Shown: in pieces, positions 18,090 through 64,000 of the stretch
Layout: the number at the start of each line of letters is the position of its first letter
Position numbering within the stretch: the stretch's first letter is position 1
Origin: Corallium rubrum
Lineage: Eukaryota; Cnidaria; Anthozoa; Scleralcyonacea; Coralliidae
Direction of reading: 5' to 3'
NCBI GenBank assembly: GCA_964035015.1
Contig: OZ036007.1
Span: 13,583,641-13,647,640 of the forward strand
Length of the DNA: 64,000 nucleotides
The notes under the pieces: model-generated
The model's database searches: none
The model's input: only the letters and a program-made list of their open reading frames with translations
What the model was told of the DNA's origin: nothing
Translations under genes and position numbers: made by a program

Positions 18090-18915
18090 GGCGGTGACGA
18101 TGGTAGTGATGATTGTGGTGGTGGCGGTGGTCGGATAGTGCATGGTGGTGGTGAGGTCGTGGTGGTAATGAAGTGGTCGTGGTAGTTCGTTGTAGTGGTG
18201 CATGGTGGTGATGGGAGTGGTGGTGGTGGTGGTGGTGGTGATGGGAGTGATGGTGGTGGTGGTAGTAAAGTGGTCGTGGTAGTTCGTTGTGGTTGTGCAT
18301 GGTAGTGATGGGAGTGGTGTTGGTGGTGGTGGTGGTGGTGGTGGCGGTGGTGATGTTGCGTGGAGGTGGTGGTAGTGAAGTGGTCGTGGTAGTTCGTTGT
18401 GGTAGTGCATGGTGGTGATGGGAGTTGTGGTGATGGTGGTGGTGGTGGGCCGGTGGTGGTGGTGGTGACGGGAGTGATGGTGGTGGTGGCGGTGGCGGCG
18501 GTGGTGATGTTGCGTGGAGGTGGTGGTATATAGTGAAGTGGTCGTGGTAGTTCATTGTGGTGGTGCATGGTGGTGATATTGGTGGTGGTGGTGGGCCGGT
18601 GGTGGTGGTGGGCCGGTGGTGGTGGTGACGGGAGTGGTGGTGGTAGTGGTGGTGGTGGTGGTGGCGGCGGTGGTGATGTTGCGTGGAGGTGGTGGTATAT
18701 AGTGAAGTGGTCGTGGTAGTTCATTGTGGTGGTGCATGGTGGTGATGGGAGTGGTGGTGATAGTGTGGTGGTGGTGGTTGTGATGCGAGTGGTGGTGGGA
18801 GTGGTGGGAGTGGTGGGAGTGGTGGTGGTTGTGATGGTGCCTGGTGGTCGTGGTTGATGGTGATGGTGGCGATGACGGCAGTGGTGATGGGAGTGGCGGC
18901 GGCAGCGGGCATGGT
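18090..18915 (+). repeat. GGT/GTG minisatellite with higher-order pattern
   Basis: About 825 bp built of GGT/GTG/GAT triplets. A recurring landmark GTGGTCGTGGTAGTTC.. appears near 18168, 18271, 18380, 18540 and 18707, giving an irregular higher-order period of about 105-165 bp. Long His/Pro/Thr-rich ORFs on the minus strand are low-complexity artefacts. Confidence 0.85.
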
Positions 18916-33144: not shown

Positions 33145-35291
33145 GTAAGTAAATGGCACTAAAACAATCTGAATAACGGGACTGTTTTTCTAAGTTAATC
33201 ATTAGAAATAAACTCTCTCTTGCAATTATAAGGTTGGCGTTTTTTGAGCATACAACTTGCTTAATTTAAGGTGTGCTATTATTTTTGTATTGTATTGTAT
33301 TGTATTGTATTGTATTGTATTGTATTGTATTGTATTGTATTGTATTGTATTGTATTGTATTGTATTATATTGTATTACATTGCATTGCAATGTATATTGT
33401 ATTGTATTGTATTGTATTGTATTGTATTGTATTGTATTGTATTGTATTGTATTGTATTGCATTGCATTGCATTGCATTGTATTGTATTGTATATTGTATT
33501 GCATTGTATTGTGTTGCATTGCATTGCATTGTATATTGTATTGTATTGTATTGTATTGTATTGTATTGTATTGTATTGTATTGTATTGTATTGTATTGTA
33601 TTGTATTGTATTGTATTGCATTGCATTGCATTGCATTGTATTGCATTGCATTGTATTGTATATTGTATTGCATTGTATTGTGTTGCATTGCATTGCATTG
33701 CATTGTATATTGTATTGTATTGTATTGTATTGTATTGTATTGTATTGTATTGTATTGTATTGTATTGTATTGTATTGTATTGTATTGTATTGTATTGTAT
33801 TGTATTGTATTGTATTATTGTATTGTATTGTATTGTATTGTATTGTATCGTATTGTATTGTATTGTATTGTATTGTATTGCATTGCATTATATATTGTAC
33901 CGTATTGGATATTGTACTGTATTACATTGCATTGCATTGCATTGTATATTGTATTGTATTGTATATTGTACTGTATTACATTGCATTGCATTGTATATTG
34001 TATTGTATTGTATATTGCACTGTATTACATTGCATTGCATTGCATTGCATTGTATATTGTATTGTATTGTATATTGTACTGTATTACATTGCATTGTATA
34101 TTGTATTGTATTGTATTGTATTGTATTGTATATTGTACTGTATTACATTGCATTGTATTGCATTGTATATTGTATTGTATATTGTATTGTATTATTGTAT
34201 AGTATTGCATTGCATTGCATTGCATTGCATTGTATATTGCATTGTATATTGCATTGTATATTGCATTGTATTGCATTGCATTGCATTGCATTGCAATGCA
34301 TTACATTGCATTACATTGCATTGCATTGCATTGCATCGCATTGCATCGCATTGCATCGCATTGCATCGCATTGCATCGCATTGCATCGCATTGCATCGCA
34401 TTGCATCGCATTGCATCGCATTGCATCGCATTGCATCGCATTGCATCGCATTGCATCGCATTGCAGTGTACTGCACTTGTATTGTATTGCATTGCATTGC
34501 ATTGCATTGCATTGCATTGCATTGCATTGCATTGCATTGCATTGCATTGCATTGCATTGCATTGCATTGCATTGCATTGCATTGCATTGCATTGCATTGC
34601 ATTGCATTGCATTGCATTGCATTGCATTGTATTGTATTGTATTGTATATTGTACTGTAGTACATACAGTGCAGTGCAGTGCAGTGCAATTGATTGGAATA
34701 GATTGGAATGGATTGAATTGGATTACTGTTGTGTTGTGTTGTGTTGTGCTGTGCTGTGCTGTGCTGTGCTGTGCTGTGCTGTGCTGTGCTGTGCTGTGCT
34801 GTGCTGTGCTGTGCTGTGCTGTGTTGTGTTGTGTTGTGTTGTGTTGTGTTGTGTTGTGTTGTGTTGCATTGTATTCGGCAAAGTAGTATTGGTAATTCCC
34901 TGTGTGAAACAGATAATTATAGTTACTCTTTTACTCTATATTTCGTTACTTAGGTTCGGCATTAAGATGTTATTATTGCATGCCATCATGCCTTGCGGAA
35001 CCGACCACCTGTGCTTACGCCAACGAGACTTACTGTCTGAGCATGCGCAGTCGGCCTGCAAGAAGCTCGGAGAATGTTTTCATTAAATCATGCGCCAACC
35101 AGGACATGTGTCGGGCGGCGCATCACGCCTGCGAAGATCTGAAGAAAAACGCCACCGAGTGTCATGCTCTTTGCTGTGAGAAGAATTTGTGTAATTTGCA
35201 CCATGACCCGTCTAATGCTGTGACCAACTCGTTACCAGTCTTTCTCACCGTGCTGGCCTTATTGCTACATCTGAGCGATTGGTTCTCGTAG
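33093..35291 (+). CDS. Ly6/uPAR three-finger GPI-anchored protein, copy 1
   Basis: Two coding exons, 33093-33144 and 34954-35291, join in phase 1 across a GT-AG intron to give 129 residues. Exon 1 encodes a signal peptide (MMILPSQVLLSFSLVTLG). Exon 2 opens with SALRCYYC, the usual mature N-terminus of Ly6/uPAR domains. It contains 12 cysteines and ends the domain with CCEKNLCN, the CC-x3-x-CN signature. NET and NAT are potential N-glycosylation sites. The hydrophobic end (SLPVFLTVLALLLHL) after a small-residue stretch fits a GPI-attachment signal. Family members are extracellular, membrane-tethered binding or modulatory proteins; the partner cannot be told from sequence. Length is typical of a single-domain Ly6. 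Translation from the in-exon ATG at 34980 would lose the signal peptide and first two cysteines, so the spliced start is preferred. The intron is almost wholly a pentanucleotide array. No clear AATAAA lies close downstream. Confidence 0.85.
33285..34874 (+). repeat. Variegated pentanucleotide array filling the Ly6 intron (copy 1)
   Basis: TTGTA units dominate to about 33890, then mixed TTGTA/TTGCA/TACTG with TATATTG slips to about 34340. A decamer TTGCATCGCA zone covers 34336-34465 and a pure TTGCA zone about 34490-34630. Next comes a non-array spacer (GATTGGAATAGATTGGAATG within about 34670-34730), and finally CTGTG and TTGTG units. No stop codon occurs in a TTGTA/TTGCA array in several frames on either strand, which explains the huge false ORFs here. 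Confidence 0.95.
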
Positions 35292-43677: not shown

Positions 43678-43721
43678 ATAACAATGCGTGAACAGGTAGC
43701 AGAATGTAAATTTATATTAAT

Positions 43722-44100
43722 ATGGCTGTGACAAGTGAGTGTGATCTATTGTTAAATCTACCGTTTTATAACCTAAACGATAGAGAGTTGAACTCTCTAT
43801 TTGGTATATGGTTAAGAGAACTAGATTTAGAGACTGATTTGTATAATTTACTCTCCAACCCAGACAAAAACGATGAAACTGATCCTGACCTTATGCTTAA
43901 CAATTTAACCTCTAATTATTCGGTATCAAATTTAAATATGGTTTTGAATAGTGTAGGACCAAAAGCATTATCTCTTTTTTATTGTAACGTGCGTAGCTTA
44001 CCAAAAAATTTAACAGTGATTAATGACCTAATTTATACACTCTCTTCAAAACCTGATGTACTGGCTCTAACCGAGACCAGGCTTAACGAAAATACTGTAA
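43722..44100 (+). pseudogene. LINE ORF2, N-terminal part (endonuclease start)
   Basis: The ORF2 start, a poorly conserved leader, then LFYCNVRSLPKNLTVINDLI and PDVLALTETRLNENTVT: the first two motifs of the exonuclease-endonuclease-phosphatase domain (NVRS, and E in TET). The frame stops being LINE sequence at 44100, where the Helentron-like element begins. It resumes at 52071 with NIDLLGYQFYHTDS. Confidence 0.85.
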
Positions 44101-44389
44101 CAAGACGCCCGCTAGGCGTTAACTCGGGCTACTGGGCATGGGCAATGGGCAATCGGAATGGCGATGACTGTGGAGAATGAGATTGGCGGAGGAGGGCATG
44201 TTAGAAAGCTAGTTAGAAAGCGCACTCACTTGTTTTATAAAGAACAATTTTTTTTATTGACTACCATTATAAACTTACATGCATGGACAACCTAGATTGA
44301 GACAACATAGAATTCATATACTGAAAGCCAACATGACATTGCTTTAACTATATCTCACACTATGTACGGTATTGTGACATTTTGTGTAC

Positions 44390-44739
44390 ATATTACACTT
44401 TAATATTTTAATTATTGTTAATAAACTGTTTAGATGGTGTTCACAGATCTCACATAATATCTGAAGTCATTCATTTTAAAGGCCGCAACAGCATTATCAA
44501 CAGCACTGCTCATGCTGTATATCAAGTTAGCATGACCACGTTCAATCGTACAATACTTTGGCATTCTTACATATAACTTTGGTGTTCACATATACTGTAT
44601 AACTTTGGCATTGATACATATACTTTTAGCATTTATAAATATACTTCTGGTATTCATGCATACAGTTTTTGCATTAAAACATGTATTCTTGGGGCTTTCA
44701 TAGACAACTTCGTATTCATATTCATATTCATTTGGCATA
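44390..44739. repeat. Degenerate short tandem region
   Basis: Loose repeats of ACATATAACTTTGG(C/T)ATT-like units, about 25-30 bp each, precede the main tandem array. Confidence 0.45.
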
Positions 44740-45475
44740 TAAATTGGTGGTTGATGGTTTCATAGTCCAACTCACAATTCCAACTGTGTTGCTGTTTGAT
44801 TAATACCAGATATGTCAATGTATAAAGTCATTTAATACCAGAGTAATAAATTGGTGGTTTAATAGTCCAACTCACAAATCCAACTGTGTGGTCCTAGAGG
44901 CCATTTACTTCAGACACCAGTGTTAATTTGTTTGCTCCTTCATTAATACCAGATATGTCAATGTTATAAAATCACTTAGTACCAGAGTAATAAATTGGTG
45001 GTTGGTGATTTAATAGTCCAACTCACAACTCCAACTGTGTTGTCGTAGAAGCCATTTACTTCAGACACCAGTGTTAATTTGTCTGCTCTTTCATTAATAC
45101 CAGATATGTCAATGTTATAAAATCACGTAGTACCAGAGTAATAAATTGGTGGTTGATGATTTAATAGTCCAATTCACAACTCCAACTGTGTGGTCGTAGA
45201 GGCCCTTTACTTCAGACACCAGTGTTAATTTGTTTGCTCTTTCATTAATTACCATATAAAGTCATTTAACCAGAGTAATAAATTGGTGGTTGACGCTTTA
45301 ATAGCTAGTCCAACTCACAACTCCAACTGTGTGGTTGTAAAGGCCCTTTACTTCAGGTAAAGGTCTGGGTTTGCTGTTTCATTTATACCATATATGTCAA
45401 TGTCATAAGGTCATTCAATATATACCAGAGTATTAAATTGGTGGTTGGTGCTGTAATGGTCCAACTCATGTCTTA
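44740..45475. repeat. ~145-bp tandem array inside the Helentron-like element
   Basis: The landmark AAATTGGTGGTT recurs near 44741, 44850, 44993, 45146, 45282 and 45437. CAACTCCAACTGTGTGGTC, TTCAGACACCAGTGTTAATT and ACCAGATATGTCAATG occur in each full unit. This gives five or so units, some shortened. Tandem internal repeats are usual in nonautonomous Helentron derivatives. Confidence 0.8.
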
Positions 45476-45723
45476 ATGTGAATATTGCTGAGGCTTTTCA
45501 TAATTCTACCAGATCTTTAGTTTTATCTGAAATATGAAATAGAGAGAAAATTATAAAGATTAAGCTATACATGTATGGGTACTTTGCAATATTAAAGGGC
45601 AGCTACATAGAGATTCAGTATATTTTTTTACTTACATTAATTTGTTGTCCCATGGTTCAGGTTGTCCAGGTGTTCAAGTCCTTTTCAGGACAGAGGCTGC
45701 CACTGAGTATAGGTGAATCATCC

Positions 45724-45759
<36 letters not shown>

Positions 45760-46003
45760 TTTATTTGTACCATACATACAAATTACGTATATACATAAAA
45801 ATAAGACACAAAATTAAGATGTTCCACATCTTACAATAGATTGGTACTAGCTGCCTGTAATAACCATATGGGCTAAAAAATACAAGCAGCTAATAAAATG
45901 AATTAAATAGTTATTTATATATAGTGACGGAACATTTCAAAATTGGCCTGGCATAATATTACAAATATTGAATTAAATATATTATAGTAAATCAGCCAAG
46001 CCA

Positions 46004-49000
46004 TCAATAATTATCAATAAATAAAGACAAAAGAGATCTTTTAAATTTAGTCAATGAAAATTGCCTCAATTGTTCATCAAGAGAATTCCATATCTTGGGG
46101 CCTTGGTATTTTATACTGAAAAGACCATAATTTGTTCTTACCAAAGGAAGGGAATATGAAGACTTAGAGGAGTGTCTAGTATTGTAATTGTGAATTTTAT
46201 TAACTTGTTTAAAAAAACTTTCAAAAGCTGGTGGTAGAGCTTTATTATGAAATTTGTACATAAAAACATTAATGTGGAAAGTAATTAAATCAGTCAATTT
46301 AATTATCTTGGTTTTTCTAAATAACGGACTAGAATGCTCATCAAATTTAGAAAAAGTTATAATTCTCAATGCTTTTTTTTGTAAAATAAAAAGGGCATTC
46401 AAATTTGTGGGTGACGCAGATCCCCAAGCAATTATACCATAAATTAAAAAAGGATAAATCAAAGCATAGTAAAGAGTAATTAAAGTGTTCAAATTTATAA
46501 AATAGCGAATTTTAGATAACAATCCAATATTTCTTCTTAATTTACTGCAAATATATCTAACATGATTTTTCCAATTAAGATTTGAGTCAATAAATATGCC
46601 AAGATATTTAACACAATCCTTATTTTCCAACTCCTGATTATTAATATTTAAAAAAATGGATTGGGTTAAACGCTTTTGTCTTGAGTGAAAAAGTACGAAG
46701 TTAGATTTTTCAATATTTAAGGAAAGTTTATTTGCACACAGCCAAATAAAAATTTTATCCAATTCCTCATTCAAAACCGCCTCCAACGTTAGCAAATTTT
46801 TATTGGCATAAAATAGATTAGAATCATCAGCAAAAAGATGTACATCAAGTAGTGTACATCTATTGAAATCATTTATATAAAGTAAAAATAATAATGGGCC
46901 AAGGACTGATCCTTGGGGTACCCCACAAGTAATAAACTGACTGGTGGACAATTCACTACCAATAGATACAAATTGCTTTCGATTGCTCAGATAAGATACA
47001 AACCACTCTTTTGCAATTCCTCTGATTCCATAATTTTCAAGCTTATTTAGGAGAATTGTGTGATTTACAGTATCAAAAGCTTTTCTGAAGTCCAAAAAAA
47101 TTCCACAAGAGAAACTGCTTTGATCTATGGCATTCTGTATCTTGTCGACTATACTAAGAATGGCGTGATCAGTAGAGTGATTTGTTCTAAATCCGAACTG
47201 TTTATCATACAAAACATTATTTTTTCCGATATAATTCATTAGCCGATTTTGCATCAGTTTTTCCAAAAGCTTATTGAACACTGATAAGAGAGATATAGGT
47301 CTATAGTTACTTAGACATGTACGAGACCCATTTTTAAATATGGTAATGACTCTGGCTAATTTAAACTTATCTGGAACAATACCACTACAGAATGAGGAAT
47401 TAAATAAAATCTCCAGAGGCCTAGATACAAATGTTTTAATTAATTTTAAAATATTAGTTGGAACACTAAAAGGTCCTGTTGATTTTTTGTCATTTAATTT
47501 TAATATCTCACATTCAATTTCCAATGATGTTACTGGTGTCAAATAAAAGCTATTGGGTAATGAAGCAGGTAAATAACTGCCTGGGGACCTACCCACGCAT
47601 GGAATTGATTGAGCAAGGTCAGAGCCAACTTGGATAAAATATTCATTAAATGCGTTAGCAATGAACTTTGTATCAGTTAGCTCAATATCATTAGAGACTA
47701 TCTTAGATGGAATGTTATTATTGTGGGATTTTAAGGTAATAATTTGTTTGATTCCATTCCACATTTTTTTGCTATCACTGATGTTATATGTAAAATAATT
47801 GTTATAATAATTTTTTTTACTAATTTTACACAAATGATTGATTTTATTTCTATATAATTTAAATTTTGTATAATAATAAATTGTGCGGGATTTAATATAT
47901 TTTTTGTATAAATTGTTTTTTATCTTTATGGACTTTCTTATACCTTGTGTTATCCAAGGTTTAGATCTAAATTTTAATTCTTGCTTTGAGAGTTGTTTTA
48001 CAGGAATATGAAAGTCAATAATCTGAGATACCTTTTCATGAAACGAATCAAATATTATATTTGGATCATCTGTGGACGGTAAAATTTCTTCCCAATTTAA
48101 TGATTCAAAATCATTGATCATAGCTGATTGATTAAATTTAGAAAAATCTCTTTTGTAAATTTTAATATTTTTAGGTAAATGGGAATATTTATTGATAATT
48201 AGAAAGTTAGGCAAATGATCCGTCAAGTCATAAACAATATTACCACTCATTGATAGGTGTACAGTAGAATTAAAAAAAATATTATCTATTAAAGTAGATG
48301 AGTGGTCAGTAATCCTAGTAGGTTGTAAAATATGAGGTTGAAAGTGAGAAGACATGAGGTTATTAATAAAATTATCTGTATCTGGATGTGATTCAAATTT
48401 TAAAAGATCAATATTGAAATCACCTATGATAGCACAGTATTTACACTCTTTATTTATTATATCAATAACCCCATTTATATGCTCCATAAAACTATTCATA
48501 CTTCCATTAGGATGTCTATAAACAACACCACAAATTATATTATGCTGAGATTTGTTTTCAATTTCAATCCATAACGATTCAAAGTCATCTTTAACCGATG
48601 TCGATAAATCAGATCGGACTGAATAACTGAGGTCATTCAAAATATAAAAACCTACTCCACCAGCATTAGTTAACGTAGATTGTGATAGAAAATAATATCC
48701 CGACAAATCACTATTTGTTAGTTGGTCCTGATTTAGTTTAAATTTAGTTTCAGACAAGCCAATAACAGAGAAAGGATGATTAATTTCATGAAGCATATTC
48801 ACTAAATTATCATAATTTTTTGAAAGGCTACGTATGTTACAATGCAAAATCGAAAATGAACTATTAGATGATAAACACTTAGATAATTCTTCATTGGTAT
48901 GAAATTCACTGGTATTATAATAATTAAAATTTATATCAGAAGGCATATTTAGATCAACATCAGAAATTGTAAGATGTGGAATATCTGTGGTAGAAGACAT

Positions 49001-49090
49001 AATATCTAAGCGTGGAAGAGAGTCAAAGTCACAGTCACTGAAACGCTCAGAGCTTATAGATATATTAATATTGTTAGTCATCGAACACAT
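46004..49090 (-). CDS. LINE ORF2: endonuclease + reverse transcriptase (1028 aa)
   Basis: Intact. Residues about 80-310 form an exonuclease-endonuclease-phosphatase domain: LHCNIRSLSKN, IGLSETKF, YRHPNGSM, CAIIGDFNIDLLKF, TLIDNIFF and LTDHLPNF. Residues about 560-830 are the non-LTR reverse transcriptase: NYRPISLLSVFNKLLEK, GFRTNHSTDHAI, GIFLDFRKAFDTVNH (first catalytic Asp), GVPQGSVLGPLLFLLYIND, and VHLFADDSNLFY, which carries the FADD catalytic pair. The C-terminal ~200 residues resemble the usual CR1/L2 tail (YGIIAWGSAS, NYNTRHSS, GPKIWNSL). No RNase H is seen. The product nicks target DNA and primes reverse transcription on it. The start Met at 49088-49090 follows ORF1 after 45 bp, as in related elements. 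Confidence 0.9.
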   Translation of the reverse strand: MCSMTNNINISISSERFSDCDFDSLPRLDIMSSTTDIPHLTISDVDLNMPSDINFNYYNTSEFHTNEELSKCLSSNSSFSILHCNIRSLSKNYDNLVNMLHEINHPFSVIGLSETKFKLNQDQLTNSDLSGYYFLSQSTLTNAGGVGFYILNDLSYSVRSDLSTSVKDDFESLWIEIENKSQHNIICGVVYRHPNGSMNSFMEHINGVIDIINKECKYCAIIGDFNIDLLKFESHPDTDNFINNLMSSHFQPHILQPTRITDHSSTLIDNIFFNSTVHLSMSGNIVYDLTDHLPNFLIINKYSHLPKNIKIYKRDFSKFNQSAMINDFESLNWEEILPSTDDPNIIFDSFHEKVSQIIDFHIPVKQLSKQELKFRSKPWITQGIRKSIKIKNNLYKKYIKSRTIYYYTKFKLYRNKINHLCKISKKNYYNNYFTYNISDSKKMWNGIKQIITLKSHNNNIPSKIVSNDIELTDTKFIANAFNEYFIQVGSDLAQSIPCVGRSPGSYLPASLPNSFYLTPVTSLEIECEILKLNDKKSTGPFSVPTNILKLIKTFVSRPLEILFNSSFCSGIVPDKFKLARVITIFKNGSRTCLSNYRPISLLSVFNKLLEKLMQNRLMNYIGKNNVLYDKQFGFRTNHSTDHAILSIVDKIQNAIDQSSFSCGIFLDFRKAFDTVNHTILLNKLENYGIRGIAKEWFVSYLSNRKQFVSIGSELSTSQFITCGVPQGSVLGPLLFLLYINDFNRCTLLDVHLFADDSNLFYANKNLLTLEAVLNEELDKIFIWLCANKLSLNIEKSNFVLFHSRQKRLTQSIFLNINNQELENKDCVKYLGIFIDSNLNWKNHVRYICSKLRRNIGLLSKIRYFINLNTLITLYYALIYPFLIYGIIAWGSASPTNLNALFILQKKALRIITFSKFDEHSSPLFRKTKIIKLTDLITFHINVFMYKFHNKALPPAFESFFKQVNKIHNYNTRHSSKSSYSLPLVRTNYGLFSIKYQGPKIWNSLDEQLRQFSLTKFKRSLLSLFIDNY

Positions 49091-49135
49091 GATAAGTTAT
49101 ACAAAGACAATAATAAAAAGTATATAGTACTTGAC

Positions 49136-49909
49136 TTAGCTTTCGAACACCTTTAAATCTTTTATTGATGCTATGTGCATAACAGAACTATGATCATCCT
49201 TTTTCATGTAAATCTTCCCCACATTTGTCCATAAAAACTTGAGTCCTTTAGCTTTCTTTACCTGAAGACATTGGTAAAATAAGTCCTTATTTCTTTGGGT
49301 GAGACTTTCATTGATGAAGATTTTATTGGAAGTGTTATATCCAAGGTTTTCTGAGGTAATATTCTTGAGCAATCTTCTAGCACGGTAGAACTTATCGCGT
49401 ACTATGCGATTTGTAAATTTGACTATAATTGGAGTTGGAGAACCAGTATAAAGACTAGATGATCTTCTACTAGGTAGACGATGGCTGATTGAGATATCAT
49501 ACTCTTGTATAGTTACTCCAATTTTATCCCCAAGGCTTTGGACAATATCGTTCGTTTCTTCCACGGATTCGGATTCTTTCTCGGGAATTCCTTTGATTTC
49601 TAGGCAGTCCCTTCTTGAGTACTGTTCTAAATTATTCATGGCTTCCTTGAGTGAATTAATCTCATTCGCAGAGCCCAATACCTGTGTTTTAAGGCTCGTA
49701 TTTTCTTTGACCAAGTCGTTATTCGCTACTTCAACTTTGCTTAATCTCTCGACAAATTCCTCAAATTTGGTATTGAGAAAAGTCTGACTACTGATCACCT
49801 CGGTAATCTTGTCGTCAAGCTCTTTGTAACGTGTCGTCAAAGACTCACTCAAGCTATGAATCAGATTCTCGATTTTATCAAATCTAGCATTGATTTTCTT
49901 GCTATCCAT
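49136..49909 (-). CDS. LINE ORF1: coiled coil + RRM-like (257 aa)
   Basis: Intact. Residues about 1-100 are a charged coiled coil (MDSKKINARFDKIENLIHSL, then KVEVANNDLVKENTSLKTQV). Residues about 100-230 resemble the L1-ORF1p/transposase_22 type RNA-binding region (NLEQYSRRDCLEIKGIP, SISHRLPSRR, PIIVKFTNRIVRDKFYRARR, KIFINESLTQRNKDLFYQC, LKFLWTNVGKIYMKK). Such proteins trimerise and coat the element RNA. It aligns by eye with the disrupted ORF1 at 42497-43677, so the two LINEs are related but clearly distinct. Confidence 0.85.
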   Translation of the reverse strand: MDSKKINARFDKIENLIHSLSESLTTRYKELDDKITEVISSQTFLNTKFEEFVERLSKVEVANNDLVKENTSLKTQVLGSANEINSLKEAMNNLEQYSRRDCLEIKGIPEKESESVEETNDIVQSLGDKIGVTIQEYDISISHRLPSRRSSSLYTGSPTPIIVKFTNRIVRDKFYRARRLLKNITSENLGYNTSNKIFINESLTQRNKDLFYQCLQVKKAKGLKFLWTNVGKIYMKKDDHSSVMHIASIKDLKVFES

Positions 49910-50478
49910 CGCGAATAATGTAGAATGGAATACGATAAACTTGTTATAGATACAAAATTATAATCTCTGCTGTCTTTAGTAATATAATTAAGAAATTTTT
50001 ATCTCGCTTACAATAAACACGTCCGCCATTTATCTCGCTTACAATAAACACGTCCGCCAGTTGGACTGCACTAATTTGGGGTTGGACCATTAGAAATCTT
50101 TGGGAGAGGGGGTAAAAAAAATATTTCTAAGCATGAATTTTTTCATCCTATGTAAGTTCTGCAGGATTTGTTTTTGGACAATAAAGTGGTTATTTATTAA
50201 AGTTGTAAACAGTTTGCCAGTGTATTCTCATTATATTGACTGCAGGATTTTTTTTATCACTTTCCCTTGCACAGGAATTGTCCCCTCCCTGCAAGATTTC
50301 CAAATTGGCCCACCCCTTATTGATAAATATGGTTTGTGAATATGGATGCATGGATCATGAGGAGACTATGTACATTGTGTAAGATAAACTTGCTTGATAA
50401 CAATTGCCAGAAAGAATTGGATACAACTACTTGTAATTAATATAATATTTCAATTAATGTGATAGATACAATTATTCC

Positions 50479-51250
50479 CTAGTTGCAATATTGTAATATG
50501 ATTTTGATGGCATCATGATCAGAATAATACACACTGACTACATAATTGTCAATTATTTGAAATACTGTGGATCTAATATACACATGGTCTAATAAGCTAC
50601 CAGAAGAAATAAATGTAGGTTTTGTTACAATCTGAGTGTAATTGAGAGATTCCATTAAAGATTTTAGTGGTTGAACTTGATTGTCATTCAAGTAATTAAT
50701 ATTAAAGTCACCAAGAATCATGTCAATTGTATAACTATGTAACACGTATCCCAAACAATCTACATATTGTGGGATGTTGGAGGCTTGCTTTCGATACAGC
50801 AAAAGAAAAGTTATTTTTTCTTGGGATTGACTATTAACCAGGTCAAATTTTAATGCATAATTTTAGTGAAGAAAAATATTCACACTCTCTGATTTCTACA
50901 GTATTTCTTGTGCATAGTGCCATACTCGAATATTTATCAGTATCATGATCTTGACGGTGGAGTTTGAAAGGACTGAGATTATTTAAAATTTCATTGTCAG
51001 AATCCTGAGGTAGTAGTTGGGTTTCAGTAAGAGCTATGACATCACTATTAAAAACTCTTGAATCACATTTAATATCGATGCTATGTTTTTTGAGAGATCT
51101 TATATTTAAAAGTGATATGGTCAAAAGATTGAAATTGTCTTGGAATAGAGTTGTTGAATGTGGAATCCTACATTCCTTTCGTAGTCTTTTGTATTCTTCA
51201 AGAACTTTAGGATTTGCTTTAATATGCTTACTCGCATTCTTTGCAAATTT
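50479..51250 (-). pseudogene. Helentron endonuclease with helicase C-terminal tail, broken
   Basis: Reading minus from about 51250: ASKHIKANPKVLEEYKRL followed directly by LLTISLLNIRSLKKHSIDIK and DVIALTETQL. The first segment resembles the end of PIF1-like helicases found in such elements; the second is the start of an exonuclease-endonuclease-phosphatase domain. After a frameshift at about 50803-50843 it continues with DMILGDFNINYLND, LLDHVYI and VYYSDHDAI to a stop at 50479. This helicase-endonuclease fusion is a Helentron feature. An in-frame stop near 51257 and the absence of the Rep and helicase core upstream show a truncated relic. Confidence 0.65.
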
Positions 51251-52069
51251 TATTCATCTACATTATATAACCCCAATGATTGTCCAATTATCTACATCTT
51301 ATTCAAAAAAACACAGCCATACTAGTGTGCCAAAACATTGAAATGGTGGCCATACTGGTGTACCAAAACATTGAAATGATGGCCATATTGGTGTACCCAA
51401 ACAATAATACACACTTGATGAAAGTAACATCGACTTTTATTTGCAAGACATCAGTACAATAAATCAATAATAAACAATACAAGCAAAAATGAAGCAAACC
51501 ACAAATATTAATACAGTTTAAACATCAATACATTTACACACAGCATTCACAGACACAAGTCAGTTCGGCTAAATGTCAACCTCGAATCGATGAAGATGTA
51601 AAACATAACATGTACCTTTCACTTGCAAGTTGGCTTTATCAACTTTCTTTGTTCTTTGATTTACAGCACTTGAGCAACATTTTCAGTACAATTTAGTTAA
51701 TAACACATGTAAATTGATCGAGAACACATTGATCGAGAATTTTCGTGCGTACGGTTATCGAGATCGCCGACCAACCCAGGTCTACTATAGTCCATAATTT
51801 GTAAGCATTGTGAGCGTGTTTATCATTAAAACACAAATTCACTTCGAACAACACAACCAAAGGCCGTCAGGAGAGAAAAAACGCATCACTTCTGCACGCT
51901 CCTGCATGAAAATCAGCCATGATACAGTACACCGCGTGGTTTCGCAAAGCCTACCGGTATCGGAATGATGCAATAATTGCAATTTGTCGACACAAAAAAA
52001 AAAATAAATAAATAAAAAAATAAAAATAACAGAGCCGAAACCTAGACTCGACTACCACAGTAGCCCGAG
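51251..52069. other. Helentron-like 5' region, noncoding
   Basis: A ~33-bp unit (CAAAACATTGAAATGGTGGC) is repeated about three times at 51330-51405. An A-rich run (about 51988-52027) lies just inside the 5' terminus, matching the T-rich run after the 5' end of the element at 62914. No gene is seen. Confidence 0.6.
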
Positions 52070-52070
52070 T

Positions 52071-53301
52071 AATTAACATTGATCTCCTCGGTTACCAATT
52101 TTATCATACTGATTCATTAACTGCAGCAGGCGGTGCAGGTATTTATGTCTCTCAAAATTTGAAATCAATTCCAAGGCCTGATATAAAATTAAACACTGAA
52201 TCAGTCGAATCCTGTTGGATCGAAATTGATCCTGGTAATAATGCCTTAAACCATATAATGATAGGCTGTATATATAGGCATCCAAAATCAAATATTGAAA
52301 TCTTTACAGAACAGCTCGAAGAGTTGCTTCAGTGTATAAATCAACGTAAATACGATGTTTATATATTAGGCGATTTTAATATTGATTTTTTCAAATATAC
52401 AAATCATCAACCTACTGAAAAATATCTGGATATGTTATACTCGAATAATATAACTCCTGTTATTACTAAACCCACTAGAATAACTAATCATACTAAGACA
52501 TTGATTGACCATATTTATACAAACAAATCCACCTCTCAACTAACATCTGGAATCGCACTTGCTGATATATCAGATCATCTTCCAGTGTTTTGTATCGCTA
52601 ATATACCAATTAAACGAAACAAAGAAAAAAAGTTTTACAGAGATTATAAACACTTCAATAAACAGTCTTACTTAAATGATATGCAGAATATTGATTGGAA
52701 CGTCACTGTAAATGAAAATGATGGTCTTAATCAATATACAGAAAAAGTTATACATCTTATTACAGAAGTGAGTGATCGACATGCCCCCATAAGAGAGGTG
52801 CCACGAAGTAAACTTAAACAAATTACTAAACCTTGGATTATTAATGGTATATTAAAGTCTATCAAAACCAAACAAAAAATGTATCGCACCCATTTCCATA
52901 GTAACAATATGGAAAAAGTGATGCAGTACAAGAAATATTCAAACAAACTTAATAAGATAAAAATGGAAAGCAAGAATCGATATTTCAATAGGCAATTTGA
53001 GAGGTGCAAAAATAATTTAAAAGCCACATGGAAATTAATTGGAGCACTTATTAAGCGGAAAACTAAAGGTCAACAATACCCTACTAGAATAATAAGAAAT
53101 AATAAGGCATATACAACAAATCCGGATATAGCCAATCAGTTCAATGAACATTTTATCAATGTAGGCCCAAACCTTGATAAATCAATTGAATCTACAAATA
53201 TAAATCCTTTAGATTATATACAAAATTCACCTGTGACAAGCTTTGCAATGTCACCAGTTACTGAAGTACAAGTCCTTGAACAATTTTCATCTTTAGACTG
53301 A
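52071..53301 (+). pseudogene. LINE ORF2, endonuclease remainder and linker
   Basis: Continuation of ORF2: GAGIYVSQNLKSIP, SCWIEIDPGNN, IGCIYRHPKSN, VYILGDFNIDFFKYTN, KTLIDHIYTNKS and ISDHLPVF, the later motifs of the endonuclease domain, then the linker to RT. A frameshift at about 53300 (CTTTAGACTGATGGCAAG) ends the frame, and a second at about 53388 follows. Between them TDGKKASI and SIPNSMIKIA are readable in the adjacent frame. Confidence 0.85.
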
Positions 53302-53389
53302 TGGCAAGAAAGCTTCTATTAGTATACCTAATAGTATGATAAAAATAGCAGCTCCTGTAATTTCACCCATTTTTACTCATATTTAGCGA

Positions 53390-54791
53390 ATCTATTACAA
53401 CAGGTATTGTTCCCGATATTTTAAAAATTTCGAGAGTTACACCAATTTACAAAAGTGGTATTACCACAGATCCCTTGAACTATCGCCCAATATCCACATT
53501 GTCTCCTTTTGCTAAAGTCCTTGAAAGATTAGTTTTCGATCAGCTAGAGTCATTTGTTGAAAAAAATAATATTATTTACAAATATCAATTTGGCTTTAGG
53601 AAAAGACATTCTACCGAACAAGCAATACTAGAAATTACTGACAGTTTGAAAACTGCAATTGATAATAAACAGATTACATGTGGCTTATTCTTGGACTTCT
53701 CGAAAGCCTTTGATACAGTTAATCACCAAATTCTTCTTTCTAAATTAAATAAGTATGGTGGTAGCCCTCTTGCATGGCTCACTGATTACTTAAATAACCT
53801 ACAACAGTACGTGAAAATAGGAAATGTGGACTCAAATAAATTACAAATGACCTGTGGTGTACCACAGGGTACAACACTGGGACCACTTTTATTCTTAATT
53901 TATATAAATGACATGCCTAATTGTTCCAAAAAGCTTTCTTTTCGAATATTTGCCGATGATACGAATGTCTTTTATACTAGTAAATGCGTTCAGGAAGTTG
54001 AAAGTGTAATGAATGAGGAATTATTACATCTTCAACGTTACTGCGCAACAAACAGACTTTCTAAAAATTTTAAAAAAACTAATTTTATGCTGATAACTTC
54101 TCAAAAGAAAAGAATTCCAGATTTTCAATTTGGAAATATCGAACAAAAAGATCACATTAAGTATTTAGGCATATATATTGATAAATATATTAATTGGGAA
54201 CAACAAATTAAACATGTTAAATGTAAAATGGCAAAAAATACGGGAATCCTGAATAAACTAAGGTATTACCTTGATTTGAATATGCTGAAGCAACTTTACT
54301 ATACTTTAGTGTATCCTTATATTACATATGGCCTTATGAGCTGGGGCAACACATACACTACAAAACTAATGAAAATCCGAACTTGTCAAAACAAATGTAT
54401 TAGAAACATTTTTTTCGCAAATAAGAGAGAAAGTGCCACACCCTATTATAATCTCTTAGGAATTTTGAAATTTGATAATATCTTCAAACTAAAAACTGCT
54501 ATATTTACTTATAAAATTCTAAATGAAAACGACAATGTACCATCGGTGTTCTTCAATTCCATATCAACAGCTTCTTCTTGTCATAATTATAATACTAGAT
54601 TCGCTGCCAAACGAAACTTTAGCCGACCGATGGCTCATACAAACTATGGAATACATACATTTAAATTCATGTCTTCTAAAATTTGGGAATCAATTGACTT
54701 CAATATTAAACGCTCAGAATCAGCACACCAATTTAAAAAAACAATATATGAACTGTCTCTTATCTACCCAAATGTAATCTATCAGATCTGA
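53390..54791 (+). pseudogene. LINE ORF2, reverse transcriptase and C-terminus
   Basis: The frame is open from about 53390 (SESITTGIVPDILK) to the stop at 54789-54791. RT motifs: NYRPISTLSPFAKVLER, FGFRKRHSTEQAI, GLFLDFSKAFDTVNH, GVPQGTTLGPLLFLIYIND and RIFADDTNVFY, all with catalytic aspartates retained. The tail has YGLMSWGNTY, HNYNTRFAAKRN and SSKIWESIDF. Only the upstream frameshifts and the nested element prevent a full ORF2. Confidence 0.85.
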
Positions 54792-59412: not shown

Positions 59413-62023
59413 GTAAGTATATGGCACTAAAACAATCTGAATAACGGGATTGTTTTTCTAAGTTAATCATTAGAAATAAACTCTCTCTTGCAATTATAAG
59501 GTTGGCGTTTTTTGAGCATACAACTTGCTTAATTTAAGGTGTGCTATTATTTTTGTATTGTATTGTATTGTATTGTATTATATTGCATTGCATTGTATAT
59601 TGTATTGTATTGCATTGCATTGTATATTGTATTGTATTGTATTGTATTGTATTGTATTGTATTGTATTGTATTGTATTGTATTGTATTGTATTGCATTGC
59701 ATTGCATTGTATTGCATTGTATTGTATATTGTATTGCATTGTATTGTGTTGCATTGCATTGCATTGTATATTGTATTGTATTGTATTGTATTGTATTGTA
59801 TTGTATTGTATTGTATTGTATTGTATTTGTATATATTGTATTGTATTGTATCGTATTGTATTGTATTGTATTGTATTGTATTGCATTGCATTGCATTATA
59901 TATTGTACCGTATTGTATATTGTGCTGTATTACATTGCATTGCATTGCATTGTATATTGTATTGTATATTGTACTGTATTACATTGCATTGCATTGTATA
60001 TTGTATTGTATTGTATATTGTACTGTATTACATTGCATTGCATTGCATTGCATTGCATTGTATATTGTATTGTATTGTATATTGTACTGTATTACATTGC
60101 ATTGCATTGTATATTGTATTGTATTGTATATTGTACTGTATTACATTGCATTGCATTGCATTGTATATTGTATTGTATATTGTATATTGTATTGTATTAT
60201 TGTACTGTATTGCATTGCATTGCATTGCATTGTATATTGCATTGTATATTGCATTGCATTGCATTGCATTGCATTGCATCGCATTGCATCGCATTGCAGT
60301 GTACTGCACTTGTATTGTATTGTATTGTATTGTATTGTATTGTATTGTATTGTATTGTATTGTATTGTATTGTATTGTATTGTATTGTATTGTATTGTAT
60401 TGTATTGTATTGTATTGTATTGTATTGTATATTGTATTGTATTACATACAGTGCAGTGCAGTGCAATTGATTGGAATAGATTGGAATGGATTGAATTGGA
60501 TTACTGTTGTGTTGTATTGTATTGTATTGTATTGTATTGCATTGCATTGCATTGTATTGCATTGTATTGTATATTGTATTGCATTGTATTGTGTTGCATT
60601 GCATTGCATTGTATATTGTATTGTATTGTATTGTATTGTATTGTATTGTATTGTATTGTATTGTATTGTATTGTATTTATTTGTATATATTGTATTGTAT
60701 TGTATCGTATTGTATTGTATTGTATTGTATTGCATTGCATTGCATTATATATTGTACCGTATTGTATATTGTGCTGTATTACATTGCATTGCATTGCATT
60801 GTATATTGTATTGTATATTGTACTGTATTACATTGCATTGCATTGTATATTGTATTGTATTGTATATTGTACTGTATTACATTGCATTGCATTGCATTGC
60901 ATTGCATTGTATATTGTATTGTATTGTATATTGTACTGTATTACATTGCATTGCATTGTATATTGTATTGTATTGTATATTGTACTGTATTACATTGCAT
61001 TGCATTGCATTGTATATTGTATTGTATATTGTATATTGTATTGTATTATTGTACTGTATTGCATTGCATTGCATTGCATTGTATATTGCATTGTATATTG
61101 CATTGCATTGCATTGCATTGCATTGCATCGCATTGCATCGCATTGCAGTGTACTGCACTTGTATTGTATTGTATTGTATTGTATTGTATTGTATTGTATT
61201 GTATTGTATTGTATTGTATTGTATTGTATTGTATTGTATTGTATTGTATTGTATTGTATTGTATTGTATTGTATTGTATTGTATTGTATTGTATTGTATT
61301 GTATTGTATTGTATTGTATTGTATTGTATATTGTATTGTATTACATACAGTGCAGTGCAGTGCAATTGATTGGAATAGATTGGAATGGATTGAATTGGAT
61401 TACTGTTGTGTTGTGTTGTGTTGTGTTGTGTTGTGTTGTGTTGTGTTGTGTTGTGTTGTGTTGTGTTGTGTTGTGTTGTGTTGTGTTGTGTTGTGTTGTG
61501 TTGTGTTGTGTTGTGTTGTGTTGTGTTGTGTTGTGTTGTGTTGTGTTGTGTTGTGTTGTGTTGTGTTGTGTTGTGTTGTGTTGTGTTGTGTTGTGTTGCA
61601 TTGTATTCGGCAAAGTAGTATTGGTAATTCCCTGTGTGAAACAGATAATTATAGTTACTCTTTTACTCTATATTTCGTTACTTAGGTTCGGCATTAAGAT
61701 GTTATTATTGCATGCCATCATGCCTTGCGGAACCGACCACCTGTGCTTACGCCAACGAGACTTACTGTCTGAGCATGCGCAGTCGGCCTGCAAGAAGCTC
61801 GGAGAATGTTTTCATTAAATCATGCGCCAACCAGGACATGTGTCGGGCGGCGCATCACGCCTGCGAAGATCTGAAGAAAAACGCCACCGAGTGTCATGCT
61901 CTTTGCTGTGAGAAGAATTTGTGTAATTTGCACCATGACCCGTCTAATGCTGTGACCAACTCGTTACCAGTCTATCTCACCGTGCTGGCCTTATTGCTAC
62001 ATCTGAGCGATTGGTTCTCGTAG
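59361..62023 (+). CDS. Ly6/uPAR three-finger GPI-anchored protein, copy 2
   Basis: Coding exons 59361-59412 and 61686-62023, phase-1 junction, 129 residues. The protein is identical to copy 1 except F to Y in the C-terminal hydrophobic GPI signal (SLPVYLTVLALLL), so the predicted mature domain is unchanged: SALRCYYC start, 12 cysteines, CCEKNLCN end. Splice signals are intact and nothing suggests a pseudogene. The intron is longer (2273 against 1809 bp) because its pentanucleotide array contains an internal duplication. The role is inferred only from family: an extracellular three-finger domain tethered to the membrane. The two copies lie about 26.7 kb apart in the same orientation. Confidence 0.85.
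59555..61605 (+). repeat. Pentanucleotide array with higher-order duplication (copy 2)
   Basis: Same unit types as copy 1, but a block of about 0.85-0.9 kb is present twice. The landmark CAGTGTACTGCACTTGTATT occurs at about 60297 and 61146, and the spacer GATTGGAATAGATTGGAATG at about 60470 and 61369. The first block returns to TTGTA after TTACTGTTGTGTTG; the second runs into a pure TTGTG tract of about 190 bp (61404-61600). The TCGCA zone of copy 1 is reduced to two units per block. Confidence 0.95.
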
Positions 62024-62682: not shown

Positions 62683-62913
62683 GTTAGGTTAAGGTCTCCG
62701 TTAAGGTTTGCAGGGTAATTTCGATAAAGCGCTCTCAATTCGTCAGAATTTAAGCCACAAAAATAGAATAGATATCGTTAGAAAGCTATTAATTTGTAGA
62801 ATACAATGTGGGTATTTGATTTTGAGATAAACACAAACCAATAATAGTTGTGAATTTTTAAATTAAAACCAGAGGACTTCCCTCGGAGCTCCTTAAGTAA
62901 AAAGCGCTTTATT

Positions 62914-63723
62914 ACTCGGGCTACTGTGGTAGCCGAGTCGAGGTTTCGCGATTCTTTTTTTTTTTTATTATTTTTATTTTTATTTTTTTACGACGCGTTA
63001 TTAGTCCTCCGCGCGGCCGCTGGCGATATTGACCAATAAACTTTGCGAAACTGAGGCATCTGACTAACTGACCATATGCATGTGACCAGTGGCTTCTTTT
63101 TTTTTCGACTGAGTGAGTGAGTGAGTGAGCTTTCTCGTCTCGGATGTGTTTTGTTTGTTTACAGACATAGTTTAATATTGGGCAGTAATGTCGCTGGCAA
63201 GTATCTTGATATTATTATATACACTTACAATCGCACACGCCGTTCATTAAGTGAACTTGCAGCAAGTGACACTTTCCAGGTAAACATGAAGCTGTGTAAT
63301 AAGGCGAAGAGACTTGACATATTGAACGGCTGTGGAAATAATACTTTCTTTCTTTGCTTTCCTGATGTCTGATCACTCGTCTCGGATGTGTTCTGTGTGT
63401 TCACAGACATAGTTATTGGTTAGTAATGTCGGTGGCAAGTATCTTGATATTGCATACACTTACAATCGCACACGCCGTTGATAGTTGTGTTGATATTTAA
63501 TACCTGAAGAGACTCGACATATGAACGCTGTGTACATGTGTGGAAATATGTTAATAAATACAGGCAATCGTGTTTTGTTATTGCAAATTGTGTTTTCTAT
63601 CGGAGAATTGGATTGCGTTTTGACTTTTGTCTGTGACCAATGTGTTTAATAGACTTAGACCTTAGCACTGCATAGCACTGTGATTTTGCAGTAGCCCGAG
63701 TGAACGCCTGACCAGGCGTCTTG
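62914..63723 (+). mobile_element. Small Helentron-like element (810 bp)
   Basis: 5' end ACTCGGGCTACTGTGGTAGC (62914), followed by a T-rich run as in the large element. The 3' end is CAGTAGCCCGAGTGAACGCC with the hairpin ACGCC..GGCGT and terminal GTCTTG (63723). T lies on both sides and there is no target duplication. The interior has two diverged ~235-bp units starting CTCGTCTCGGATGTGTT (about 63133 and 63379) and containing TCGCACACGCCGTT. Noncoding and nonautonomous. The ORF at 63121-63372 belongs to the first unit. Confidence 0.7.
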
Positions 63724-64000
63724 TTTTCTTCAAAATCTTGTCTGCAGTTTAATTCCGAGATGCGTTTCCAGCAAAACGGTGTCAGCGTTTTTCGCCTGGT
63801 ATGTTGAGTTTTGCTGATTTTACTGACGACCAAAGTTGAAAATGCTGTTTTTCGACCAACATTCGGACAAAATAAGTCATAAAATCGAAACTAAGGAGTT
63901 AATAAAAAACACTGACACCGTTTTGCTGGAACTGAATGGAACTGCGAAAACCTTTTTTTGAACAAAATGAAACGCTTTATATATTCTTAAGTCGCCCTGA
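63724..64000. other. Interior of the foldback element, right part (Y')
   Basis: Matches 36113-36179 joined directly to 37086-37290, that is, the same element without the Penelope insertion. It is cut by the window end. Confidence 0.75.

What the first reader, a model, noticed from the sequence alone, without database searches (positions are those of the whole stretch)
44101..52070. 8-kb Helentron-like element recognised by asymmetric TIRs, 3' hairpin and an endonuclease relic
The inverted 13-mer ACTCGGGCTACTG lies at the very 5' end but internal to a hairpin at the 3' end. The flanks rejoin to restore the LINE coding frame with no target duplication. A PIF1-helicase-tail/endonuclease fusion fragment lies inside. 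The three lines of evidence are independent.
Basis: partly seen in the sequence, partly recalled or inferred. Interest (0 to 1): 0.7.

Follow-up and report, generated by a model that had tools for sequence, protein, structure and literature searches.

The report
Helentron-derived element inside a retrotransposon

Summary
The stretch is a non-autonomous Helentron derivative (HINE, DINE-1-like) on the minus strand, 7972 bp between its TT flanks. (1) The 13-mer occurs 2,756 times in the genome, reversed control 1; the full 3' end (13-mer, hairpin, CTTGTT) 1,194 times, the 5' end 345 times, controls 0. (2) The host LINE is uninterrupted at six other places; one shows exactly the predicted empty site, so insertion was at TT and the LINE frame is restored. 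(3) Two relatives, 96-99% identical where aligned, have the same ends at other sites. (4) The relic is 95.7% identical in DNA to the C-terminal endonuclease of long Helentron frames (up to 2,962 codons) with Helitron Rep and PIF1 helicase. Corrections: 4.34 kb is a later LINE insertion, so the element proper is about 3.6 kb; and limits 44101-52070 leave two extra A, so the frame is restored only at 7972 bp. New family of a known kind; modest interest.

The parts
44099..52072 (-). Helentron derivative (HINE) with the TT (AA on +) at each side; 7974 bp here, 7972 bp if two of the four T belong to the element
   Evidence: empty site in L091; relatives on C46 and C13 with the same ends
52033..52072 (-). 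5' terminus: TT + 13-mer ACTCGGGCTACTG + partner half, foldable as an imperfect hairpin (5' IR)
   Evidence: 345 exact genome copies of TTACTCGGGCTACTGTGGTAG, control 0
51240..52032 (-). 5' non-coding region with 33-bp tandem repeats (51316-51414)
50482..51236 (-). endonuclease relic (C-terminal EN domain of Rep/helicase/EN), with a frameshift; DNA homology to EN-bearing copies runs on to about 50065
45724..50064 (-). nested LINE inserted later into the element (ORF1 49136-49957, EN+RT ORF2 46004-49096, (GTT)n tail)
   Evidence: 28 of 29 other EN loci have no insertion at this point
44135..45723 (-). 3' untranslated region shared with EN-bearing Helentrons, with 151-bp tandem repeats (44789-45468)
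44099..44134 (-). 3' terminus: inverted 13-mer, hairpin ACGCC-TAGCG-GGCGT, CTTGTT
43710..44098 (+). host LINE ORF2, part 5' of the insertion
   Evidence: uninterrupted relatives, 97-98% identical
52073..54791 (+). host LINE ORF2, part 3' of the insertion (EN, then RT)

Best explanation
It is a deletion derivative of an autonomous Helentron of the same genome. It lost the Rep-helicase coding part and kept the 5' terminus, most of the endonuclease, the 3' untranslated region with 151-bp repeats, and the 3' hairpin terminus. Inferred mechanism: the Helentron protein, supplied in trans, recognises the 13-mer/hairpin ends, copies one strand by HUH-nuclease rolling-circle replication, and inserts the copy into a TT dinucleotide without a staggered double cut. 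One such copy landed in ORF2 of a LINE. Later another LINE of a different family inserted into it and more than doubled its length. Shown: ends, insertion site, relatives at other sites, coding relatives, order of nesting. Inferred: the rolling-circle mechanism and trans mobilisation.
For: Genome counts of ends against controls. 345 of 353 copies of the 19-base 5' end are preceded by TT. Empty site identical to the predicted join in L091; L092 and L093 also uninterrupted, with one base different. Same ends at three different flanks. EN relic 95.7% identical over 840 bases to L063; at that C49 place the Helitron_like_N match and the EN match are both reported in an open frame of 2,962 codons, and the C-terminal piece holds PIF1 over its cut-off, with UvrD_C_2 and Exo_endo_phos below theirs. 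On the listed part of C1, 4 of 6 EN loci have the exact 3' end within 5 kb downstream on the same strand (rough chance 4e-8), and 4 of 32 have the exact 5' end within 12 kb upstream (rough chance 6e-5).
Against: C1:58.735-58.746 Mb has an exact 5' end, a partial Rep match, EN at 92% and the 3' region, but its last 3' bases were not read. 28 of 32 EN loci on C1 have no exact 5' 21-mer within 12 kb, and 2 of 6 no exact 3' end within 5 kb. The EN relic was not confirmed in the C13 relative. A TT duplication cannot be told from element-borne T. Covariation of the hairpin was not supported, and the window's own 3' hairpin folds no better than shuffles (z -1.16; 29 of 200 as good).
Confidence: 0.96

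Rival explanations
1. A DDE DNA transposon or MITE with 13-bp inverted repeats and a 2-bp TT target duplication.
For: Short inverted repeats; TT on both sides of the three copies read.
Against: The inverted repeats are asymmetric: 23 bases with a hairpin lie outside the 3' copy only. The coding relatives that share the 3' region encode Rep/PIF1/EN. At least two T at each end is what HINEs show (PMC4067079, section 6).
Confidence: 0.02
2. The EN relic is just a piece of a third LINE caught in an unrelated repeat.
For: The EN is of the LINE-like Exo_endo_phos_2 kind, and weak by Pfam.
Against: It is 95.7% identical in DNA to an EN that follows a PIF1 helicase in one open stretch, and the same 3' untranslated region follows it in 28 of 29 other EN loci fetched.
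Confidence: 0.01
3. Canonical Helitron or Helitron2 rather than Helentron.
For: Rep/PIF1 helicase protein and a 3' hairpin are common to these.
Against: No 5' TC or 3' CTRR and no A-T target; an EN is fused to the helicase; the Rep motif reads RGSPHLH with the Helentron-type S (against PMC4067079, section 7).
Confidence: 0.02

Closest known systems
HINE / DINE-1-like elements, non-autonomous Helentrons (Thomas et al. 2014, PMC4067079; 12 passages and sections 6 and 7 seen)
   Same: 13-bp (sub)terminal inverted repeats, a 5' IR nested in the 5' repeat, short 3' palindrome, insertion at TT without clear target change, tandem repeats inside, deletion derivative of a Rep/helicase/EN element
   Different: The 3' inverted repeat ends 23 bases from the terminus, against about 38-60 bp in the mite families; the 13-mer as text is in none of the held papers
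Helentron-carried satellite-like repeats of Crassostrea gigas (PMC7492417; search listing and start of abstract only)
   Same: Non-autonomous Helentrons carrying tandem repeats (title)
   Different: Not compared in sequence; here the 151-bp repeats also lie in the 3' region of EN-bearing copies
Canonical Helitrons (features as given in PMC4067079)
   Same: Rep and PIF1-like helicase, 3' hairpin
   Different: No TC/CTRR ends, TT instead of AT target, EN domain present in the partner

Membership tests
Helentron / HINE | 12-15 bp inverted repeat at or near the 5' end, inverted copy internal to a 3' palindrome | tested here: met
   the distance to the 3' end is shorter than in the mite families
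Helentron / HINE | insertion at TT without target-site modification | tested here: met
   empty site; 345 of 353 5' ends preceded by TT; a TT duplication cannot be told apart
Helentron / HINE | autonomous partner with Rep, PIF1 helicase and C-terminal endonuclease in one ORF | tested here: met
   both the PF14214 and the EN match at C49 are reported in a 2,962-codon frame; PIF1 over its cut-off, Exo_endo_phos below it, in the C-terminal piece
Helentron / HINE | partner carries the same termini | tested here: met
   exact 3' end read in L062 and placed near 4 of 6 EN loci; exact 5' end placed near 4 of 32 EN loci; no copy read whole
Helentron / HINE | Rep motif 2 with S between G and P, and F/Y-x-R triplet (Helentron signatures) | tested here: inconclusive
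   first signature met: IEFQMRGSPHLH in L033, L036, L037, L038; second not plainly present (YALR)
Helentron / HINE | Rep/helicase falls in the Helentron clade of a tree | not tested
   no reference set was fetched
Helentron / HINE | accessory RPA or OTU ORF (optional) | tested here: inconclusive
   none of the 109 OTU matches lies at C49:10.11 Mb or C1:58.74 Mb; RPA not searched
Canonical Helitron | 5' TC, 3' CTRR, insertion between A and T | tested here: not met
   ends TTACTCGGG / CTTGTT, TT site
Helitron2 | no endonuclease domain in the Rep/helicase protein | tested here: not met
   EN fused C-terminally in the relatives
DDE transposon / MITE | symmetric terminal inverted repeats and target duplication | tested here: not met
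   23 outer bases with a hairpin at the 3' end only; no duplication beyond an undecidable TT

The most novel reading that the evidence does not exclude
One intact Helentron lineage, recognised almost only through the 13-mer and the small 3' hairpin (36-37 bases), cross-mobilises several sequence-unrelated passenger families. This would have produced well over a thousand element ends in this genome and may still be active.
Probability: 0.4. Interest if true: 0.4.

Novelty: new member of a known kind. Interest (0 to 1): 0.22.

Why it matters
It is a cleanly resolved case of a non-autonomous Helentron tied to coding relatives, with an exact empty site and a nest of known order (LINE in HINE in LINE). 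The host genome, with many long Rep-helicase-endonuclease frames and over a thousand ends, would be a good place to look for Helentron activity. It changes no concept.

Tried and rejected
Rejected: DDE transposon; canonical Helitron; Helitron2; EN relic as a stray LINE piece (reasons under rivals and membership). Hairpin covariation: of 32 ends examined, 23 gave a stem; 108 of 115 cells pair, and one G-C to A-T double change occurs (L018, L028). On the 8 distinct rows, however, 34 of 40 pair against a shuffle mean of 33.7 (1281 of 2000 shuffles as good), so this gives no support; one row, L006, was misregistered by the script. Folds as single-stranded DNA: window 3' hairpin z -1.16, 5' end z -2.29; small element 3' z -2.19, 5' z -3.45. 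A search of the paper library for the 13-mer as text gave 0 papers; a listing for HELIANO/HLE2 was of no use. The denominator for TT after the 3' end was not obtained, because the request did not complete five times. In one search the EN list was C1 matches at 60% identity or more within the listed ranges; two C1 rows at 41% and those beyond 91.7 Mb were left out, and pieces of one locus (7.042 Mb) were merged. The host species was not identified. One empty-site stretch (L094) was fetched at a wrong place through my arithmetic and was dropped; the two C1 sites and the right C8 site were not read.

Full report
Setting. The window is G000:C28:13583641-13647640 of a 474-Mb genome in 312 contigs. 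LINE and Helentron content suggest an animal (inference).

Ends. On the element (minus) strand the 5' end reads TT-ACTCGGGCTACTG-TGGTAGTCGAGT, foldable as an imperfect hairpin, and the 3' end CAGTAGCCCGAGT-TA-ACGCC-TAGCG-GGCGT-CTTGTT. The 13-mer has 2,756 genome matches against 1 for the control. TTACTCGGGCTACTGTGGTAG has 345 against 0, and the same without TT has 353, so 345 of 353 such 5' ends are preceded by TT. The 3' pattern with hairpin and CTTGTT has 1,194 against 0. Of the 34 13-mers read with flanks (30 loci taken in contig order, some of them the two ends of one element, plus 4 in the window), 22 were classed as 3' ends, 9 as 5' ends and 3 were left over (one of these, L006, looks like a diverged 3' end). 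21 of the 22 3' ends run into CTTGTT, and 8 of the 9 5' ends have TT outside. On the listed part of C1, 8 of 44 5' ends have a 3' end within 3 kb in the right order and strand, against 1 in the wrong order.

Insertion site. Joined host flanks found six uninterrupted LINE copies over the whole 399 bases at 97-98%. Four stretches were fetched; three lay at the junction and all three are uninterrupted. L091 reads ACTGTAATTAACATT, exactly the join; L092 and L093 read ACTGTAAGTAACATT.

Relatives of the derivative. C46:814721-818375 matches the window element at 99% (3' 1600 bases) and 96% (5' 760 bases); C13:12959995-12963908 at 99% (3' query 450-1600 only) and 96%. Their 5' ends carry an extra C in the 13-mer, their 3' ends run into CTTGTT, and their flanks differ from the window and from each other. 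The C46 copy spans 3,655 bases and has its endonuclease piece 473 bases inside the 5' region, as in the window (472), so the same deletion derivative seems to have moved as a unit. No EN match was listed at the C13 place (150 of 916 candidates scored).

Nested LINE. 45724-50064 holds two open frames (273 and 1030 codons), the larger with EN and RT. Of the other 29 EN loci fetched, 28 have the EN region and the 3' region within 27 bases of each other and no LINE match; the 29th (L076) lacks the 3' region. I saw no clear target duplication in the five boundary stretches printed. It is another family than the host LINE (34% and 43% protein identity in the EN and RT parts).

Coding relatives. PF14214 has 150 matches, all over the cut-off, from 480 candidates of which 150 were scored. 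The relic's second half has 150 matches from 916 candidates (150 scored), the best other ones at 95%; its own Pfam match is below the cut-off and the first half has none. The Rep and EN matches are both reported in a frame of 2,962 codons at C49 and of 2,750 at C1:20.43 Mb. Pfam finds Helitron_like_N and DUF6570 in the N-terminal piece of C49, and PIF1 over its cut-off, with UvrD_C_2 and Exo_endo_phos below theirs, in the C-terminal piece; 381 bases between the two pieces were not read. The relic begins at the linker after the helicase (SKHIKANPKVLEEY). L062 (C12) has EN, 3' region and the exact 36-base 3' end of the window element. C1:58.735-58.746 Mb has, in order on one strand, the exact 5' end, a partial Rep match, EN at 92% and the 3' region.

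Verdict. A Helentron-derived HINE, ordinary in kind, new as a family as far as I could test (one search tested only the 13-mer as text in the held library; no repeat database was searched).

Noticed in passing
window 62912-63725 (+): A second, apparently complete HINE of about 0.8 kb with the same 13-mer ends but another 3' hairpin type (ACGCCT-GACC-AGGCGT).
   Followed up: partly
window 45724-50064 (-): Nested LINE with both frames open, a doubled 31-bp repeat at its 5' end and a (GTT)n tail; possibly young, age not tested.
   Followed up: partly
window 33285-34647 and 59553-61607: Two long arrays of the pentamer TTGTA, about 1.4 and 2.1 kb, open in several frames.
   Followed up: no
window 18115-18869: GTG-rich array with a 169-bp higher-order unit.
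   Followed up: no
G000:C1:7.0420-7.0445 Mb: A fragmented EN relic with the exact 5' end about 2 kb upstream on the same strand: perhaps a second EN-bearing HINE.
   Followed up: no
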